From Lachnospiraceae bacterium (GTDB taxonomy: Bacteria; Bacillota; Clostridia; Lachnospirales; Lachnospiraceae), in NCBI GenBank assembly GCA_024403415.1, contig JAKSRY010000001.1, forward strand, positions 1 to 64,000: a stretch of DNA of 64,000 nt, in the 5' to 3' direction. The translations under genes were made by a program, and so were the position numbers. Numbering within the stretch: position 1 is the first letter of the stretch; the number at the start of each line of letters is the position of its first letter. Below, piece by piece: positions 22,895-35,397 of the stretch. Under the pieces are notes generated by a model. It did no database searches and had not been told where the DNA came from. It saw only the letters and a list, made by a program, of their open reading frames with translations.

Positions 22895-23302
22895 TTAAAC
22901 AAGGATTTTATCAGAGAGTGCCATCATAGATTCCTGCTTCTTTACTCCAGTCACTTCTGCGTAGATATTCATAGTAGTCTGAATATCTGCATGTCCCATG
23001 ATATCCATAATCACCCTTAAGTTTGTCTCATTCTCACAGAGTCTTGTACAGAAGGTGTGACGTAATACATGGGCTGAAAAATGAGGAAGCAGAATCGGAT
23101 CACGATGCTCCTTCTTTGCAATAAATGTCTCTTCCTCATTGTAGGCTGTGTAGATACGGTTGATTGCTCGATTCACAGATTCTGGCGTGTATACGTGATT
23201 CTCACAAGTCGAAAAAATAAATCCGCTGTATCCATCAATCTCATCCTTACAGAAGCCAATGCAACGCTGCAATTCTAGCTCTTCCAAGATTGCATCCTTC
23301 AC
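22895..23302 (-). pseudogene. int: Tyrosine integrase, C-terminal catalytic part (out of frame)
   Basis: 135 codons with the second half of the catalytic site: HVLRHTFCTRL (HxxR), then MGHADIQTTMNIYAEVT (second His and the Tyr nucleophile). It continues the protein encoded at 23247-24116 but lies in another frame. One extra base in the run GAGAGGTGTG near 23308-23316 explains it: without it the chain reads PILEGVKDAILEELELQ. The full enzyme would be about 400 residues, normal for Tn916/Tn1549 Int. Either inactivated or a sequencing error. Confidence 0.85.
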
Positions 23303-24116
23303 ACCTCTCTAAGATTGGAATCCTACGCTTACCAGATTCTGTTTTCGGTGAATTCACATGGTTCTCACACTTGCCATCCAAATTCTTTCTATAAATCAGG
23401 TTGTGGTTCACATCAATCTCATTTGCTTTAAAATCAATATCTTCCCAGCGGAGCCCCAGGCATTCTCCAATTCTCATACCAGTACCTAGAAGCACAGTAA
23501 TAATTGGTCTCCAGCCTCTATAGTCCTCATGGGTATCAAGAAATGTATATACTGCGCTTTGCTGTTCAATCGTAAGCGCATGTCTTTTCTTGTGTTCCCA
23601 CTGGTGGCTCTTCTTAATCTCACCCATAACACCATCGGTAGGATTACGATTAAGATAACCATCTCTTACTGCCATGTTAAAGGTTGGATGAAGAAGGGTA
23701 TGTGCAATCTCCATACTTGCCGGCTTAAAGCCTCGCTCATTAATCAGTGAATAGTAAAAGGCTTTTACATCAGAATATCTAACCTTGCTAAGCTTCTTCT
23801 TTCCAAAGGACTCACGAATGTACTTCTCGTACATATAAATGTAATTTTCTCTGGTAGAAGGCTTGATATCATATTTTAAAGAAATATAACGGTCAAACAT
23901 CTGATTTACAGTGATTCTGTCTGCCTTTGCTGGATCCAGTCCATCATCGATTCTTCGATGAATTTCCTTTTCCTTAAGTCGAAGTTTTACCAAATCCTTA
24001 TCATAAATGCTATGTCTTTTACCAAGCTGATCAGTGTAGCTATATGCGTATCTGCCATCCTTACGCTGCGTCTCGCCCTTAAAAAGGACGCGACCTTTAT
24101 TATCTTTTCTACTCAT
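23247..24116 (-). CDS. int: Tyrosine integrase, N-terminal and core part (frameshifted)
   Basis: 289 codons. Residues about 10-50 are the AP2-like arm-binding domain of Tn916-type integrases (DGRYAYSYTDQLGKRHSIYD). Residues about 65-160 are the SAM-like core-binding domain. Then comes the first catalytic Arg (GTGMRIGECLGLRW, about residue 213). After RRIPIL the frame is wrong and ends in a meaningless tail. The ribosome site GAGGAACA precedes ATG 24116. The excisionase-like gene lies 107 bp upstream, the usual Xis-Int order. The catalytic His and Tyr are only in the downstream frame, so this product alone cannot recombine DNA. Confidence 0.85.
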   Translation of the reverse strand: MSRKDNKGRVLFKGETQRKDGRYAYSYTDQLGKRHSIYDKDLVKLRLKEKEIHRRIDDGLDPAKADRITVNQMFDRYISLKYDIKPSTRENYIYMYEKYIRESFGKKKLSKVRYSDVKAFYYSLINERGFKPASMEIAHTLLHPTFNMAVRDGYLNRNPTDGVMGEIKKSHQWEHKKRHALTIEQQSAVYTFLDTHEDYRGWRPIITVLLGTGMRIGECLGLRWEDIDFKANEIDVNHNLIYRKNLDGKCENHVNSPKTESGKRRIPILERCEGCNLGRARIAALHWLL

Positions 24117-24223
24117 TGTTCCTCGCTTTCTGCGAGAAATAACGTAGCCTATTGGTATTATAGCATCATTTCCCGCATTGTAATGTAAAATCTGATTCTT
24201 CTTATAATTTTCTCAAGAACACC

Positions 24224-24487
24224 TTAGTTGTTCTCAATTCGAAAGCTATCCAAGTATTCCTCAAAGATGGTGGTGTCCACCAATGAAATTCCCTTGCACT
24301 TAATTACCGCTCCCGCTTCTCTTGCCATATCCTGAAAGGTATGAAGGCTAACAGAATATCTGATAGCGCCCTCCTTGTAACGAATATATTTTCTAACATA
24401 AATATCCTGAGCCACCTTATCCATTACCTCAGCATTAACTGCTGGTAATTTTATTTCCAATTTACGTGCTTTTTGTGCTTGTGCCAT
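24224..24487 (-). CDS. DUF6462-type excisionase-like protein
   Basis: An 87-residue basic protein. The segment YIRYKEGAIRYSVSLHTFQD followed by MAREAGAVIK and the ending FEEYLDSF match the small MerR/excisionase-like DUF6462 family that sits beside Tn916/Tn1549-type integrases. It should bend DNA at the element ends and favour excision. It starts inside the end of the preceding gene (37-bp overlap) with AAAGGAG 7 bp before ATG, so the two are coupled. Confidence 0.8.
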   Translation of the reverse strand: MAQAQKARKLEIKLPAVNAEVMDKVAQDIYVRKYIRYKEGAIRYSVSLHTFQDMAREAGAVIKCKGISLVDTTIFEEYLDSFRIENN

Positions 24488-28010: not shown

Positions 28011-28349
28011 TGTAGTGATCACCTGTCCCTTTCTTCTTTTTTATATTATAGTTCTATAAAATCTATAAAATCATTGAAATCATACTCATCTGACTGTACC
28101 AGAAATCCCATCATCTTTTTTACATTACTTCTCCTTCTTACATAGGTTGAATCAGAAAGCATATATAAGAATTGCCATAAAATAATCCTCCATAATAGAC
28201 AACACTACTGTATAAATAGATCTTAAGATCATTCGCTTAATAGATCAACCCAAAAAGTTTGTGATATCATACTTTTTTATCCTGTTTTCACACATACTAA
28301 CCGTCTTCTCTATATGTTGACAGCATGAACCCACAGCTGTGTTTGAAGG
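28011..28349 (-). other. ariA leader region
   Basis: A gene-free AT-rich stretch. The only promoter-like element I can point to is a TATAAT on the minus strand (complement of 28045-28050), about 35 bp before the ariA start, with no convincing -35 box. Two direct copies of ATTTTATAG lie beside it. The region separates the ariAB unit from the upstream terminator, so ariAB is probably an independent transcript. Confidence 0.4.
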
Positions 28350-28397
28350 CATTAGAAAAGGCCCTGACCATAGGGTTATTCCTACAATCAGAGCCTT
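28350..28397 (-). terminator. Terminator after the DUF4238-like gene
   Basis: On the minus strand AAGGCTCTGA and TCAGGGCCTT form a 10-bp stem (one G-U pair) around a 19-base loop, followed by TTTTCT. It sits about 40 bp past the stop at 28440. Confidence 0.7.
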
Positions 28398-28439
28398 CGG
28401 CAGAACAGCCTAGCACAGCTGCCCCTGCTGTAAACATAT

Positions 28440-29186
28440 TTATTCTTCCCTTATTTTTACAACTTCTCCAATAATATTCTGGAGAAGGTTCTTATTACTT
28501 GAAATAACATACTTTTTATCTCTTTTCATTTCCTGGACAAGAGACAGTTGGTTAATCATATGAATAACCTCTTGATCATCAACTTCATATACTGCCACAA
28601 AGTTTTTGCCCTCTTCCTCTTCAATATGAATATCATCTAAAACTATTGCTCTTCTCGGTGTCACTGGACAAATAATTCTATTTTTACATTGTGTAAGTCC
28701 CCCAGTTGGTAAGACTAATTCTTCTGTGCTTTTATTAACTAAAAAAGATATATGATATTGTTGTAATATTCTCTTTTCTTGCGCCATAAGGTATCCATCA
28801 TGTGCCGCAATATCATGTTGATCCCTTCTGGGAAAAAACTGAAAAAACACTGAATTACTATTCAGTTCTGTTTGAAACGATGGCGAGCGTGCAAGCAATG
28901 AATACACATAACTAAAGGCGATATCCCGATATTGAACCGGCGGTTCGTCACCAGCTTCAAATTCTGTATCTTTAATGAACTTCAATAATTCTCCTAGCAT
29001 GCTTTCCACTTCAGCTCCAAGAAAATCTTCAACATAATCAGAAAAATACCCTTTTTCTGTGTACATCGTCTTTGGATATCCCCTGCGAATTTTGCCGTTT
29101 TCAATATCAAAAAAATATAACAATCCATTTTCATCTGTAAAATTGTTCATTACTAGTCTCGGCATCTGAATATGTGAATTCACCAT
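28440..29186 (-). CDS. DUF4238-like protein, second gene of a coupled pair
   Basis: 248 residues. The opening HIQMPRLVMNNFTDENGLLY, then YFFDIENGKI, resembles the start of DUF4238 proteins (His-x3-Pro-Arg then an Asn-Phe pair). Later comes a helical middle (YVYSLLARSPSFQTELNS) and the segment CPVTPRRAIVLDD, also typical. DUF4238 has no established activity but is frequent in defence islands. Its start overlaps the stop of the zinc-ribbon gene by 1 bp (TAATG), so the two are translated together; a terminator follows. Family assignment is from motif memory. Confidence 0.55.
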   Translation of the reverse strand: MVNSHIQMPRLVMNNFTDENGLLYFFDIENGKIRRGYPKTMYTEKGYFSDYVEDFLGAEVESMLGELLKFIKDTEFEAGDEPPVQYRDIAFSYVYSLLARSPSFQTELNSNSVFFQFFPRRDQHDIAAHDGYLMAQEKRILQQYHISFLVNKSTEELVLPTGGLTQCKNRIICPVTPRRAIVLDDIHIEEEEGKNFVAVYEVDDQEVIHMINQLSLVQEMKRDKKYVISSNKNLLQNIIGEVVKIREE

Positions 29187-30169
29187 TATTCAATCCTCGT
29201 TTTATCTGTATTTGTTAGAGATAAAAGCCCATTTCCAAGCTTTTTGATTAACTCAACTAGCTCATATACCTCCGCTTGCTTCACTACTATTCTTTGTCCC
29301 ACCGCATATGTTTGATCTCCAGATTTATCTATATACTTTTGATCAACCATACCGTTGTTATGTTCTATGAGATGGCGCCTCTGAAACATGAGATTTAACC
29401 TCTTTAACTCCAGTTCCGATAGCCATTCATCATATCCTTTCCCCGTAGATTCTTTAAAAAGCTGACTACCTTTTTCAATTATTTGAAAATCATTTACTCT
29501 CGATGTTTTTTCAGTTATCTTATCATAATTACAAGCGGCATATTTCTGAAAAGCCGACACTGCATCTCCAATAGAGCTTTCTATGAGTCCACGACATAAT
29601 GTTTCAGCCTTGTCTCTTCCATAAGATGAAGTTAACATTTCTCTCATATCAGGAATAGACTTTAGCATCTTCTCTATACTATCTAATGATTCGTCAAAAA
29701 CACTTGATACCGAATTGTAACCACAGCACGGACAAAAATAAGCAGCTCCAATCACACTGTATCTTGTTCCACATTTTTCGCAGATAATGTCTGTTTCCCA
29801 TTCTTCACACTGGCCTATCGGATTATTTTCAAATGAAATTCTGCGACCCGGTTTATATGTTAATTTTACATACTTGTTTCTACGAGTAGATTTTGCCAAT
29901 TCTCCAAAAGCCTCGTCAAGTTTTCCTGAAATTAATGACATGGCATAATTAGCAGCAACATCCGGCATTCCTTCTAACTGTTTTTGCGTCCACCATTTAT
30001 CTGAAGTATCAATGTGTCCACACATAGGACAATGTACTTCTTCATCAGAAACCTTCTCCTTCCAATCATTCATATTTATTTTAAATGAATATAAACAATT
30101 CTCATTCGGGCATTCCCTATCAAAATATCCCTTTTTATCTGACTGAAACGTAATTGGTATCTCCATCAT
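29186..30169 (-). CDS. Double zinc-ribbon protein with HEPN-like C-terminal domain
   Basis: 327 residues. A first cysteine set (CPNENC ... CPMCG, about residues 20-50) and a second (CEKCG ... CPCCG, about 133-157) form two zinc ribbons. The C-terminal part is helical and contains RRHLIEHNNGMVD near residue 275, an R-x4-H motif of the type used by HEPN RNases. I do not recognise the whole protein. The ribosome site GGAAGG precedes ATG 30169. It is coupled by a 1-bp overlap to the DUF4238-like gene, and the pair is isolated by terminators on both sides, so it forms a two-gene module inside the defence island. RNase activity is inference. Confidence 0.5.
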   Translation of the reverse strand: MMEIPITFQSDKKGYFDRECPNENCLYSFKINMNDWKEKVSDEEVHCPMCGHIDTSDKWWTQKQLEGMPDVAANYAMSLISGKLDEAFGELAKSTRRNKYVKLTYKPGRRISFENNPIGQCEEWETDIICEKCGTRYSVIGAAYFCPCCGYNSVSSVFDESLDSIEKMLKSIPDMREMLTSSYGRDKAETLCRGLIESSIGDAVSAFQKYAACNYDKITEKTSRVNDFQIIEKGSQLFKESTGKGYDEWLSELELKRLNLMFQRRHLIEHNNGMVDQKYIDKSGDQTYAVGQRIVVKQAEVYELVELIKKLGNGLLSLTNTDKTRIE

Positions 30170-30234
30170 TACATCCTTCCCTAAAAATCTCGGCTCTTTC
30201 GTTCAATTTCCTTTAATACATTCTAGTTATTACA

Positions 30235-30261
30235 TGAAAAGGACCAGCCGAAGCTGATCCC
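30235..30261 (-). terminator. Terminator after higA
   Basis: GGATCAGC-TTCG-GCTGGTCC on the minus strand (30241-30260), an 8-bp stem with one G-U pair and a stable UUCG tetraloop, then TTTTCA. It ends the higBA transcript before the zinc-ribbon gene. Confidence 0.85.
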
Positions 30262-30286
30262 TATTATATCTCTGCCATATCGCCTA

Positions 30287-31366
30287 CTAATACGCTGTCT
30301 TAACCTTATACTTATGTTTTATAGGTTTCATAGTCCAATCATCAAATCCAACCAAACCATCATTCTGTAATCTTCCCAATACAATACCAGGATCTCTATT
30401 GATTACTTCCGAAAAACGTACAATATCATTTAATGTAAATCTTTTATTTGCCACAAACTCAGTATACTTATCTCTTGGAATCAAGCTGTCCTCTGCAAAT
30501 AAATCAGCTGCGAGCTCCTGTTCCCCGGTTTCCTTTTCAAATGAGATTCCATAATCGCCATTGATAATATGACCAATCTCGTGGAAAAGTGTAAACCAAA
30601 ATGAATCAGAATAAAATCTTCTGTCATTAACCATCAGCATGATATTATCGCCGATTTTCTTAGTAGCTCCATTAATCCTAGATCCAGCAATATTAGGTAG
30701 AACTACAAAGATAACACCTGCCTCTTCAAATGCTTTTCGAATCAATGGATAGAATTCGCTGTGGTTCTTAGTTAATGTCAACGCATACTGCACTGCATCT
30801 TCAAATTTCTTTTTATTGAACTTTGGAGCATCAACTGCCAATGCCTTATTTGTGGCAATCTGAACCATTGTATTAGCCTTAACTGTACTAGCCTCTTCTA
30901 AAGCCTCTGTTGAGCTTCTAAAGCTTACCGCCATATCTCTTTTGGTAAATACAGTTAATGTCGCTACATTCAAAAACTCTCTAAGTGCCTTTATCTGCTC
31001 ATCTTTTTTTCTAGGCAAATCAGGCAGACCATAGTTTTCTCTGAAATACTTATAATCAAATATCTCAAATACTTTTCGTTCCTCTACCAATTCTTCCTGC
31101 GATTTAAACTCAGCTATCAATGCATCATATGCATTTTGAAGATTCAACCAATAATTCACACTGGTTCCAATCATTCTAGATAACTTCATTGCAATGTCGA
31201 TTGATAAGCTCTGTTCACCACGAATTAATAAGCTTAAATTCTTAGGGGTTGTGTCTAGTCTCTTAGCAAAATCTTCCTGAGTTAATCCGCTTTCTTCAAC
31301 AATCTCTTTAATATAATATCCTGGGTGAAATGCAACCGTATCATTATATTCAATGTAATTACTCAT
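30287..31366 (-). CDS. higA: HigA antitoxin fused to ImmA/IrrE-like metalloprotease domain
   Basis: 359 residues, much longer than a plain HigA (about 100). Residues about 14-85 are an XRE helix-turn-helix of the HigA type (FHPGYYIKEIVEESGLTQED, ending VNYWLNLQ). Residues about 185-310 are an ImmA/IrrE-type domain with zinc protease motif FHEIGHIING and a downstream Glu in GEQELAADLFAE. Such fusions occur in Firmicutes. In the family the HTH binds the toxin gene operator. The peptidase part may cleave a partner or itself under stress. The start overlaps the end of higB by 8 bp, with GGAGG upstream. Confidence 0.85.
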   Translation of the reverse strand: MSNYIEYNDTVAFHPGYYIKEIVEESGLTQEDFAKRLDTTPKNLSLLIRGEQSLSIDIAMKLSRMIGTSVNYWLNLQNAYDALIAEFKSQEELVEERKVFEIFDYKYFRENYGLPDLPRKKDEQIKALREFLNVATLTVFTKRDMAVSFRSSTEALEEASTVKANTMVQIATNKALAVDAPKFNKKKFEDAVQYALTLTKNHSEFYPLIRKAFEEAGVIFVVLPNIAGSRINGATKKIGDNIMLMVNDRRFYSDSFWFTLFHEIGHIINGDYGISFEKETGEQELAADLFAEDSLIPRDKYTEFVANKRFTLNDIVRFSEVINRDPGIVLGRLQNDGLVGFDDWTMKPIKHKYKVKTAY

Positions 31367-31730
31367 AATGCTTGCTCACCTCCATTATTTCAACAATTCT
31401 CACATTCTGTGATATCTCATCAATATTGCAAGGAACATATGGTTCCTTATTCTCATCAAGTGGCTCTAATATTATACGCCACTGGTCTCGCCTTGATTTC
31501 ACATCAATAGCAAAAAATCCTTCCAGGTCCCTTCCACCTTTATTTTCAAGTTTATGAAAGTGAAAGGTTGGTTGAACTATAATATCTTTAATAGTATCTG
31601 CCTGCTTCAAAGCATTTATCCTTGCTAAAAGACTGTTTGCCAGTGCATTATTTCCGCCAAATAGCTTCTTCGCTGCTTTTAAGCTAGTACATTGTTCCTC
31701 AGTTTTGGCATCTGTATAAACTAATTCCAA
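31359..31730 (-). CDS. higB: RelE/HigB-like mRNA interferase toxin
   Basis: 123 residues of the RelE/ParE superfamily HigB type, first in its operon as usual for hig. The centre FHKLENKGGRDLEGFFAIDV and DQWRIILEP match HigB, with conserved Lys/Arg residues for mRNA cleavage on the ribosome. The start codon is TTG at 31730, with AAAGGAGG 6 bp before it; no ATG is nearby, which may hold toxin translation down. The promoter and a 21-bp palindrome lie directly upstream. Confidence 0.85.
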   Translation of the reverse strand: MELVYTDAKTEEQCTSLKAAKKLFGGNNALANSLLARINALKQADTIKDIIVQPTFHFHKLENKGGRDLEGFFAIDVKSRRDQWRIILEPLDENKEPYVPCNIDEISQNVRIVEIMEVSKHYE

Positions 31731-32625: not shown

Positions 32626-32904
32626 TTATATCATAGAATCAAATCCGTTTTTTCTAATATCTCTATCAGCAATCGACATATCCTCCATTGCCTTCATAAA
32701 TGCCTTACCAGCTTCTATCATTCCTTTTGCTTGCTCCCAATTATCTGGAACAGGAACTATCATTTCTTGAATATGCCTTGGTTGCAAGTGTTGTTGAACA
32801 GAACCATATTCATCTAACAGCATAAGAGACAATGCTGTTTCAGAAGTAAAATATGCTAACAAATAGGCTCGCAAATTATCATCTTGTACACGAACTCTAA
32901 CCAA
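32626..32904 (-). pseudogene. C-terminal piece of the fused restriction-modification protein (out of frame)
   Basis: 92 codons that continue the specificity domain of the gene at 32913-35231: LRAYLLAYFTSETALSLMLL then GSVQQHLQPRHIQEMIVPVP, the typical end of an HsdS target-recognition half. The upstream frame ends DLADIIL-stop; a change of one base near 32905-32912 joins it to VSDDLVRVRVQDDN. No ribosome site for separate translation is evident. Confidence 0.8.
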
Positions 32905-32912
32905 GTCATCAC

Positions 32913-35231
32913 TTACAATATAATGTCTGCTAAGTCTTTCGTTGCGTATGTCACTTTACCTATTGTACCAGAACGAGTAATTAATATATCTCCTTCTTCA
33001 ACTTTAAGCATCTCAATACATTTCTTTTGCGTTGTACTTGCTTTTGATTCATCCATCCATTTAATAGAAAATCTTCTTAATTCAAGTGCTCCATTTGCAG
33101 TTAAATATGGAGTAAGAGAACTTGTATCTATTGGATTATCAACTTTTATGCTTGCTGAATTCCATCTTGGACCAATATATATTCTTATTCCTGCTTCTAA
33201 TTGTCCAATAGTAGTCGTAGACCAATCATCTTTATTGTCATAATCCAATACCTTATTCAATGCTTCATTAAGTTTAGGCGAATAGTGTTGAGGATTAATA
33301 TTATAGTAATCCTTTATCTCACTCTTACTTATAGAAAAAATGTACTCAGATTTTTTATGCTCCTGTCCATTTTTAAATGCTCGGTATGCCTCAGCTATAT
33401 CATCTAAATCATGATTCAACTTGCCAGTAATGTTTCCGTTAGCATCTAACACAAACACAGAATTTCCCTTTGAATCCTGTCCTATTCTCTGAGATTGCGC
33501 CATAAAGATTTTATAATCATCCTTTGGTTTCTGCCCCTCTTTAGGTTTTGTCAAAAACAAAATGCAAGTTCTTACTCCTGTATCAGGCTGGAAGGTATCC
33601 TTATGAAGTGTAACAACACCATTCAGTTCACATCTGTCTAGTAACCATTCTCTATATGCCTCATAACTAACGTTATCAAGAAATCCCTTTGGAAGAACTA
33701 TACCTATGCGCCCCTCTGGTTTTAACCAATCGATACATCTTTCCAAAAATAATAGTTCAGGAGCTTGATGAATTAAAATATCCGCATCTTTATTGCTAAA
33801 TACAAATTTTCCACAATCATCTTTCTTAAACGAATGACCAAAATCGAACTGTTTAAGAATGCTTCTATCTGAAATCTGAGATTCCACCTTTTGTCCAGAA
33901 AACGGAGGATTTGTAGCAATTACTGATGGCGCATTTGTTTTCCCTTTTGAACATCTAGATACAATCCATGGGTCAAGACGCTCATAGGTATCTAATGAAT
34001 TACCTCTTGTCATTCCTGATTGTCCATCTCCAGTCAGTAGCATTGCACACTTTGCAATTTTTACAAGTCTTGCCGCAATCTCAACTAAATAAACGCTTTC
34101 CTTAATTGTTGTAATTTGTCTATCTCTTACAGGTGTATTCGGAGCAGTATTTTCAACAACTTTTCTTCTTAAATGTCTAAATATACTGGTTGCAAATCCT
34201 CCACTACCACCTGCAGGGTCTAATGCGTGTTCTCCTATTTGTGGGTCAAGCATGTCAACCATCATATTCACAACTAATCGGTTCGTAAAAAACTGCCCTT
34301 GCTGTCTTTTAAGATTTATATGTGTAAACTGTTCATATGTCTCACCCATTAAATCCCAGTCATCCGCATCATCATTTCTTGCCGCTAAGCTCCATCCTTT
34401 TAATATTCCAACGGCTTCAGCTATACAGTCGTTTCCCACTTGTATTTTTTCATGTGCATCAAAGACATCTGGATATTGGTCTGCATATTCTCTAAACAAC
34501 GATTGTATATTTTCTGCAACTCGATTACGACCTTCAGCAGTTCGAAAATCTGTTTCTGTTATCCAAAACCTTGGATAATCTCCTGTTGTAGTTTCATCTT
34601 GTATTTTTGCTAACAAGATTCTGACCATATCCATCGCCAAATCAAAATCTTCATTTTCCATCCCTCGACCATAAAGTTTGTTATGACACGAAGATAATAA
34701 AAACCTTACATTATGCGGTCTCGGCAAATCTTGCTTTCTTGGTATTCCTTCTTCTTCATTCCAATTATCTCCATATCTTGGTAATGATAAAACTTCATCC
34801 AATCCAACTTCTGTACCGGTTTTCTTTTTATATACTGAAATACCATCGCCATTTGTCCAAACACCACCAACTGCAGATGTATTAAATATATATGAAACTA
34901 ACTGAGCATACCCTTCTGTTGCATTAGGTTTTTTACATTCAACCACAAACAGAATATTACCTTGGTCTCGATTTAAAGCAGATTTGCTATCTACATATAC
35001 TACAATATCTGCTCTTATTTCAGAACCATCTTCACTGTTTGTCATAATTTTCGAGCCATTTTGAATAGGTACTTCTCGAAGCATATTCTTCTTTGGATAA
35101 CCATAATCAGCTTCCAAAATATTGATAAATCTTTGTCGTACTCGCTCTTCTGGTGTATCTTTTAAGATTTTTCCACTTAATACATCAATAATATCTCCAT
35201 TTTCGTTAAATACAACATCATTTAATTCCAT
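32913..35231 (-). CDS. Fused restriction-methylation-specificity protein (type IIG-like)
   Basis: 772 residues, lacking its last 90 through a frameshift. Domains: an HSDR_N-type PD-(D/E)xK nuclease (about residues 15-140; IRADIVVYV ... LFVVECKKP), an N6-adenine methyltransferase of the HsdM type (about 280-610; ALDPAGGSGGFATSIF SAM motif, catalytic NPPFSG near 450), and an HsdS-like target-recognition domain (from about 680; EEGDILITRSGTIGKV). With all three functions on one chain it should cut and methylate without a separate HsdR or HsdS. I chose ATG 35231; a GTG at 35255 is possible. It overlaps an RHH regulator gene by 14 bp. Whether the frameshift abolishes recognition is open. Confidence 0.8.
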   Translation of the reverse strand: MELNDVVFNENGDIIDVLSGKILKDTPEERVRQRFINILEADYGYPKKNMLREVPIQNGSKIMTNSEDGSEIRADIVVYVDSKSALNRDQGNILFVVECKKPNATEGYAQLVSYIFNTSAVGGVWTNGDGISVYKKKTGTEVGLDEVLSLPRYGDNWNEEEGIPRKQDLPRPHNVRFLLSSCHNKLYGRGMENEDFDLAMDMVRILLAKIQDETTTGDYPRFWITETDFRTAEGRNRVAENIQSLFREYADQYPDVFDAHEKIQVGNDCIAEAVGILKGWSLAARNDDADDWDLMGETYEQFTHINLKRQQGQFFTNRLVVNMMVDMLDPQIGEHALDPAGGSGGFATSIFRHLRRKVVENTAPNTPVRDRQITTIKESVYLVEIAARLVKIAKCAMLLTGDGQSGMTRGNSLDTYERLDPWIVSRCSKGKTNAPSVIATNPPFSGQKVESQISDRSILKQFDFGHSFKKDDCGKFVFSNKDADILIHQAPELLFLERCIDWLKPEGRIGIVLPKGFLDNVSYEAYREWLLDRCELNGVVTLHKDTFQPDTGVRTCILFLTKPKEGQKPKDDYKIFMAQSQRIGQDSKGNSVFVLDANGNITGKLNHDLDDIAEAYRAFKNGQEHKKSEYIFSISKSEIKDYYNINPQHYSPKLNEALNKVLDYDNKDDWSTTTIGQLEAGIRIYIGPRWNSASIKVDNPIDTSSLTPYLTANGALELRRFSIKWMDESKASTTQKKCIEMLKVEEGDILITRSGTIGKVTYATKDLADIIL

Positions 35232-35397
35232 TTTCTGACACAGTTCCTTTCTCACTCAGTATTTTTGCCGCTTCTAACAATGCTGTTCTTCTTACAAACT
35301 CACTATAAGAAGCATACGCTTCTAATCGAGCCGCTTGTTTTAATATATCTAATTCTTCTTCACTAACTCTAATACTCATTGAATATGTTTTGTTCAT
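35218..35397 (-). CDS. Ribbon-helix-helix regulator
   Basis: 59 residues from ATG 35397. TYSMSIRVSEEELDILKQAA then YSEFVRRTALLEAAK is an RHH (CopG/DUF1778-like) fold: a beta strand with alternating polar residues and two helices. No toxin partner is adjacent; the gene overlaps the restriction-modification gene by 14 bp. It may control that gene, as C proteins do in other systems, or be an orphan antitoxin. The open frame extends to 35487 but no ribosome site supports it. Confidence 0.7.
   Translation of the reverse strand: MNKTYSMSIRVSEEELDILKQAARLEAYASYSEFVRRTALLEAAKILSEKGTVSENGIK

What the first reader, a model, noticed from the sequence alone, without database searches (positions are those of the whole stretch)
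28440..30169. Coupled double-zinc-ribbon/HEPN-like protein and DUF4238-like protein: a possible new two-gene defence module
The two genes overlap by one base (TAATG) and are fenced off by terminators at 30235 and 28350, so they act as a unit. They lie between toxin-antitoxin and PARIS genes inside a defence island. The first has four CxxC-type pairs and an R-x4-H motif like HEPN RNases. The second resembles DUF4238, often found in defence islands but with no known function. A zinc-ribbon sensor fused to a putative RNase, controlled by a partner, would be a sensible abortive-infection design. I know of no named system with this pair.
Basis: inference. Interest (0 to 1): 0.8.

Follow-up and report, generated by a model that had tools for sequence, protein, structure and literature searches.

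The report
Zinc-ribbon putative RNase with optional partner
Two neighbouring bacterial genes look like anti-virus defence parts: a zinc-binding protein with a putative RNA-cutting end that recurs in many bacteria, usually without this partner and sometimes inside restriction operons, plus an optional partner from a family of which one member is known to block a phage.

Summary
The genes are real: P1 (29186-30169, minus strand) and P2 (28440-29186) overlap by one base, lie between two strongly folding terminators, and sit between a HigB-like/Xre-peptidase pair and PARIS. P1 belongs to a conserved family: eight cysteines and R-H-x3-H are present in 32 of 32 aligned relatives. Its N-terminal half matches PADLOC candidate PDC-M14A; its C-terminal half carries the HEPN motif but matched no HEPN model.

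An obligate two-gene module is not supported: DUF4238 lies in the held flanks of 3 of 41 P1 loci, window included. Relatives at 76-77% identity lack it. Restriction-type genes occur in 12 of 41 P1 loci against 1 of 40 control stretches; in five, P1 lies between restriction subunits. DUF4238 shows similar neighbours (4 of 9 loci), and one DUF4238 protein alone blocks T7 (PMC9122126, passage).

Best reading: a PDC-M14A-type zinc module fused to a HEPN-like RNase, an autonomous accessory effector, coupled here to an optional partner. Activity is untested.

The parts
29186..30169 (-). P1: 327-aa protein, double zinc ribbon plus C-terminal HEPN-like domain
   Evidence: ORF; PDC-M14A match residues 3-152, 2.5e-18; 32-sequence family alignment
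29714..30163 (-). P1 residues 3-152: PDC-M14A-type zinc module with C20/C25, C47/C50, C130/C133, C146/C149
   Evidence: each cysteine 32 of 32
29189..29668 (-). P1 residues 168-327: HEPN-like domain (fold not verified)
   Evidence: C-terminal alignment A5, 24 sequences, two of them with other N-termini (L003, L022)
29360..29377 (-). R265-H266-x3-H270, putative RNase active-site motif
   Evidence: 32 of 32; R and last H invariant in 24 of 24
28440..29186 (-). P2: 248-aa divergent DUF4238 protein lacking the TSD-x-P motif seen in most aligned members
   Evidence: Pfam 4.3e-12; alignment; subfamily relatives
29184..29188 (-). TAATG stop-start overlap of P1 and P2
   Evidence: sequence
30228..30262 (-). 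predicted intrinsic terminator (UUCG loop) upstream of P1
   Evidence: -14.8 kcal/mol, z -4.35
28345..28402 (-). predicted intrinsic terminator downstream of P2
   Evidence: -27.1 kcal/mol, z -5.58

Best explanation
P1 is a self-sufficient accessory anti-phage protein. Its N-terminal double zinc ribbon, the same module that stands alone as PADLOC's PDC-M14A next to a separate PDC-M14B protein, senses infection or docks on a host defence complex (inferred). Its C-terminal R-H-x3-H domain cuts RNA when released and stops the infected cell (inferred from the motif). It travels as a cargo gene. One recurrent place is a slot inside restriction operons, where it could act as a second line if a phage disables the first, as PrrC does behind its type I system (inferred analogy); in most loci, the window included, it stands elsewhere. 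P2 is an optional DUF4238 protein, from a family that also occurs in such slots and of which one member defends alone; in this locus the two genes overlap and are probably co-deployed (overlap shown, joint action inferred).
For: P1 relatives in 35 genome loci of several phyla, 19 plasmid records, 12 of them covering at least 80%, and 2 viral contigs, one partial. Eight Cys and R/H/H invariant in 32 of 32; the residue after R is H, or N in two distant relatives, as described for HEPN (PMC3710099 passages). PDC-M14A match to residues 3-152. In L025 a stand-alone zinc module and a PADLOC-confirmed PDC-M14B lie between hsdS and hsdR; L027 has the same layout with a B-like gene judged by eye; in L024 PADLOC-confirmed A and B lie beside pglX. 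P1 lies between hsdS and hsdR in L033, L034, L044, L045, and between mod and res in L038. Restriction-type genes in 12 of 41 P1 loci, window's own included, against 1 of 40 control stretches (Fisher p 0.0015); with self-hits and the GmrSD query dropped, 8 of 41 against 1 of 40, p 0.029. DUF4238 in 3 of 41 P1 loci and 0 of 40 controls. Type I restriction-type genes next to DUF4238 in 4 of 9 loci.
Against: No HEPN profile match: P1 or the family against Pfam, NCBIfam, PADLOC and PDB sequences; hhalign against 18 DUF4145 sequences gave probability 6%, not over P1's motif; no similarity to Tha-1. 29 of 41 P1 loci show no restriction-type gene by that search, and in the window P1 is not inside a restriction operon, so the backup role cannot be general. 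Most queries for that count came from the P1 loci themselves, and the control stretches are ordinary chromosome of relatives, not defence islands, at positions I picked. Nothing here shows RNase activity or phage defence.
Confidence: 0.6

Rival explanations
1. P1 and P2 are an obligate toxin-antitoxin-like pair: P1 is a HEPN RNase toxin held in check by P2, and infection frees it.
For: One-base overlap, same order and orientation in all three cases, own terminators. In L040 the two overlap by 4 nt; in L046 a 542-aa transposase-like gene (by eye) separates them. P2's subfamily relative in L116 overlaps a RelA/SpoT-domain gene by 4 nt, so the subfamily can sit behind another possible toxin.
Against: 38 of 41 P1 loci have no DUF4238 in the held flanks; relatives at 76-77% identity (L031, L032) lack it. 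None of the 11 other DUF4238 loci showed P1 in its held flanks. One DUF4238 protein defends alone (PMC9122126 passage).
Confidence: 0.15
2. Two independent defence genes happen to be neighbours in a defence island; each acts alone and the overlap is only compaction.
For: Both families occur without the other and both occur next to or inside restriction operons; one DUF4238 protein is a validated single-gene system.
Against: Same gene order in three separate supported sub-branches of the P1 tree and gene overlap in two of them, against 12 of 291 genomes with any DUF4238 match; no defence-island background was measured, so this is weak.
Confidence: 0.3
3. P1's C-terminal domain is not an RNase but a helical nucleic-acid or protein binding domain; P1 is a regulator of neighbouring restriction systems.
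For: Zinc ribbons often bind nucleic acid (general knowledge); no HEPN model matches. Embedding in restriction operons fits a regulator too.
Against: R, H and H are invariant in 32 of 32, and R-[HN]-x3-H is kept in proteins with other N-termini such as a Schlafen AlbA_2 fusion, as expected for a catalytic motif. 29 of 41 P1 loci show no restriction-type gene.
Confidence: 0.2

Closest known systems
PADLOC candidate PDC-M14 (PDC-M14A + PDC-M14B)
   Same: P1 residues 3-152 match PDC-M14A (2.5e-18) with the same two ribbons (by eye); members of both occur between hsdS and hsdR
   Different: stand-alone PDC-M14A proteins are ~150 aa with a separate partner B; P1 has the module fused to an R-H-x3-H domain, and no B match appeared in the window's PADLOC lists (two of nine lists cut at 25). 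By eye, B proteins end in hydrophobic stretches or, in L026, a TIR-like stretch
PrrC behind the PrrI type I restriction system (PMC3710099, passages read)
   Same: putative HEPN RNase gene among restriction genes in some P1 loci
   Different: PrrC has an ABC ATPase N-terminus; P1 has zinc ribbons and no ATPase match; the window's P1 is not inside a restriction operon
Tha-1 of Staphylococcus phage 80alpha (PMC11087260, passages read)
   Same: ~300-aa single protein, N-terminal part plus C-terminal R-x4-H domain, both at residues 265-270
   Different: no discernible N-terminal domain reported for Tha-1; no detectable sequence similarity
Single-gene DUF4238 defence protein (PMC9122126, passage read)
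   Same: P2 is over the Pfam DUF4238 cut-off
   Different: P2 lacks the TSD-x-P motif and overlaps P1; no PADLOC match for P2, nor for the L040 and L046 DUF4238 proteins
Item (7) among the E. coli systems of PMC9519451 (section 7 read): zinc-finger-like domain fused to a C-terminal domain of an extended ribonuclease family
   Same: the verbal description fits P1's layout
   Different: PADLOC holds PD models, yet P1 matched none; an enterobacterial P1 homologue (L014) had no blastn match in the E. coli collection of 5,426 genomes. Which PD system it is could not be read

Membership tests
HEPN superfamily | R-x4-6-H motif with a polar N/D/H after R | tested here: met
   R265 H266 x3 H270 in 32 of 32; definition from PMC3710099 passages
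HEPN superfamily | conserved upstream acidic residue, typically E-x3-[KR] (many families) | tested here: inconclusive
   E197 32 of 32 but not in E-x3-[KR]; E189 23 of 32 and R193 26 of 32
HEPN superfamily | profile similarity to a known HEPN family | tested here: not met
   no match in Pfam, NCBIfam, PADLOC, PDB sequences; hhalign to DUF4145 6%. Only one HEPN family was compared by hhalign, so this is weak evidence
HEPN superfamily | HEPN helical-bundle fold | not testable with these tools
PDC-M14 | PDC-M14A protein | tested here: met
   residues 3-152, 64.9 bits; stand-alone member L024 scores 157.9
PDC-M14 | PDC-M14B partner gene | tested here: not met
   no PDC-M14B match in the PADLOC lists of nine window proteins; seven lists complete, those of AriA and the methylase cut at 25
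DUF4238 (PF14022) | Pfam gathering score | tested here: met
   46.5 bits, cut-off 27
DUF4238 (PF14022) | motifs seen in my 11-sequence alignment: H near the N-terminus, R followed by S/T/N, TSD-x-P | tested here: inconclusive
   H and RSP present, TSD-x-P replaced by LPTGG; L072 and L073 also deviate; two subfamily relatives lack it too
type II toxin-antitoxin | toxin and antitoxin genes found together as a rule | tested here: not met
   DUF4238 at 3 of 41 P1 loci
PrrC/RloC | ABC ATPase fused to HEPN | tested here: not met
   no ATPase match in P1
Anti-phage system | protection in a phage assay | not testable with these tools
   needs bench work

The most novel reading that the evidence does not exclude
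P1 is a new class of embedded guard: a PDC-M14A zinc module that reads the state of a co-encoded defence complex, with interchangeable output (a separate PDC-M14B protein, or a fused HEPN-like RNase). The TSD-less DUF4238 subfamily of P2 is a partner that controls unrelated toxins (HEPN-like here, a RelA/SpoT synthetase in L116).
Probability: 0.15. Interest if true: 0.78.

Novelty: new variant of a known kind. Interest (0 to 1): 0.5.

Why it matters
It turns a PADLOC candidate domain into a testable modular scheme: one zinc module with different outputs, found in the same slot of restriction operons and beside a BREX methylase. If P1 is an RNase triggered by failure of a host restriction system, it would be a second, ATPase-free route to the PrrC strategy, with homologues in several phyla available for test. 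It also warns that DUF4238 next to P1 is optional.

Tried and rejected
Obligate P1-P2 module: rejected on counts. P1 as Tha relative: no similarity. P1 C-terminus as DUF4145: hhalign 6%. Searches for seed sets of other HEPN families gave too few members for profiles: Apea 0 of 118 genomes, RiboL-PSP 5 of 118, MAE_28990 2 of 148, DUF3644 3 of 149, pEK499_p136 1 of 149. tblastn with two distant C-termini found only unnamed proteins. P2 relatives: none in plasmids with the P2 and L116 proteins as queries, none in viral contigs with the P2, L117 and L116 proteins. P2-type searches: 3 of 196 genomes of the order, its own included; 2 of 16; 1 of 216, its own. P1-type queries in phages: none; in E. 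coli by blastn: none. Plasmid hits: 10 of 19 records were opened. Rows dropped before the 41-locus count: L039 and L042 (near-duplicates of L038, L041), L014 (326 of 334 residues as in L052), L011, L012, L015, L064 (partial or N-terminal only), L003/L029 and L022/L030 (C-terminal only), L028 and the stand-alone PDC-M14A loci; L065, a broken copy, was kept. L075 and L077 (short DUF4238 matches) were left out of the nine-locus neighbour list.

Full report
What is there. P1 (327 aa) and P2 (248 aa) are on the minus strand and share base 29186. Both flanking hairpins fold far better than shuffles. Upstream lie a HigB-like gene (below the Pfam cut-off) and an Xre-peptidase gene (HTH_3 plus Peptidase_M78) that matches PADLOC PD-Lambda-2_B; downstream lie AriA and AriB of PARIS. 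An N6-methylase with an HSDR_N_2 domain lies at 32913-35255. P1-P2 therefore looks like a discrete two-gene transcription unit in a defence island; that it is one transcript is inferred. P1 is not inside a restriction operon here.

The P1 family. tblastn found 19 plasmid records (12 over at least 80% of the query) and no phage record. A genome scan found 35 loci at 31-77% identity in several phyla; two viral contigs add to this, one partial. In a 32-sequence alignment all eight cysteines, E197, R265, H266, H270, G273 and D276 are invariant. Residues 3-152 match PADLOC PDC-M14A. Among 391 genomes of the class, 7 matched: the window's own, four with short N-terminal-only frames of 157-180 aa (L017-L020), one with a 304-aa frame (L021) and one matching only the C-terminus (L022). 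Among 98 relatives, 3 matched: its own, one N-terminal-only frame (L002) and one C-terminal match (L003). By eye the stand-alone proteins carry the same two ribbons. In L024 PADLOC gives PDC-M14A and, for the adjacent gene, PDC-M14B at 2.1e-108; in L025 the adjacent gene is PDC-M14B at 1.1e-87. The C-terminal half occurs behind other N-termini: a Schlafen AlbA_2 domain (L022) and an unnamed one (L003); R, last H and G are invariant in 24 of 24.

Is the C-terminus HEPN? The motif fits the published definition, including the polar residue after R (PMC3710099, passages). No profile supports it: Pfam, NCBIfam, PADLOC and PDB sequences give no HEPN match, hhalign to DUF4145 gave 6%, Tha-1 is not similar. 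I keep 'HEPN-like' as an inference from the motif.

Where P1 lives. Pfam and PADLOC identify neighbours as follows. Type I restriction, hsdS upstream and hsdR downstream of P1, with other genes between in L033, L034 and L044: L033, L034, L044, L045; hsdS two genes upstream and a contig end downstream: L040. Type III mod-P1-res: L038. Type ISP protein or its C-terminal part upstream with 4-nt overlap: L055, L047. DISARM DrmB three genes upstream: L031. CBASS-type patatin and cyclase: L061. Others: PLD (L004), KAP NTPase (L005), AbiH (L009), Tle1-like (L010), CHAT (L035), a STAND-type match below cut-off (L050), DUF3800 (L036), RES (L063). In 8 of the 44 loci listed no same-strand neighbour lies within 200 nt. 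Restriction-type genes were found in 12 of 41 P1 loci (the window's own methylase and L031's DrmB included) against 1 of 40 control stretches (p 0.0015); with self-hits and GmrSD dropped, 8 of 41 against 1 of 40, p 0.029. Limits: most queries came from P1 loci, some restriction-type genes can be missed (L062 has a GmrSD_N match by Pfam, but was not counted), and the controls are 13-kb chromosome stretches of the window's relatives at positions I picked.

Is P2 part of it? A DUF4238 profile of my own hits 3 of 41 P1 loci (window, L040, L046) and 0 of 40 controls; Pfam confirms L040 and L046. All three have P1 first and the same orientation; L040 overlaps by 4 nt; in L046 a 542-aa transposase-like gene (by eye) intervenes. 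The three lie on separate supported sub-branches of the P1 tree. So the association is recurrent but rare. In one search, 12 of 291 genomes matched DUF4238, the window's own included; none of the 11 other loci showed P1 in the held flanks. Of nine such loci whose neighbours I listed (L066-L074), four have a type I restriction-type gene next to DUF4238 (L067, L068, L070, L072), with hsdS-DUF4238-hsdR in L072; not every neighbour of the other five was scanned. Both genes thus use similar slots, which may explain their meetings without a shared mechanism.

P2 itself is unusual: the TSD-x-P motif of most aligned members is replaced by LPTGG. Two relatives, L116 and L117, also lack it; L117 is over the DUF4238 cut-off, L116 had no Pfam match at 0.001. 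In L116 the gene overlaps by 4 nt a RelA/SpoT-domain gene. Three members are too few to call a pattern.

Literature. One DUF4238 protein alone gives strong T7 resistance (PMC9122126, passages). PDC systems are 'guilt-by-embedding' candidates and validation is pending for most in the core defensome (PMC10855318 and PMC12988326, passages). PDC-M14 occurs in no paper of the library. Of 14 papers holding DUF4238, 11 were listed and I read passages of four; of 36 papers ten were listed; none of what I saw describes this pair. The preprint cited for embedded defences (reference seen in PMC12255303) is not in the library. An E. coli system described as zinc-finger-like plus ribonuclease-family domain exists (PMC9519451, section 7); I could not identify it, and it may have the same general layout, which lowers novelty.

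Verdict.

Noticed in passing
window 30287-31730: HigB-like plus Xre-peptidase pair resembling components A and B of PD-Lambda-2 (PMC9519451 passages); I did not find a third component next to it, but searched only by the PADLOC scan.
   Followed up: partly
window 23247-24487: Integrase-like ORF with an odd C-terminal end and a small excisionase-like ORF (by eye), suggesting a mobile element at the edge of the island.
   Followed up: no
window 32626-35255: Methylase ORF that ends within what looks like a specificity domain, with a second small ORF after it of similar type (by eye): apparently interrupted.
   Followed up: no
L026:204-1286: PDC-M14B-like N-terminus followed by a TIR-like stretch (by eye), so this candidate's output domain may also vary.
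   Followed up: no
L116:1477-3050: P2-subfamily gene overlapping a RelA/SpoT-domain gene by 4 nt, beside a histidine kinase-like gene (by eye).
   Followed up: partly
L052, L014: P1 homologue beside P2-like phage genes (by eye), i.e. apparently carried as cargo by a P2-like phage.
   Followed up: partly
L072:1-3494: hsdS-DUF4238-hsdR arrangement: DUF4238 itself embedded in a type I restriction operon.
   Followed up: yes
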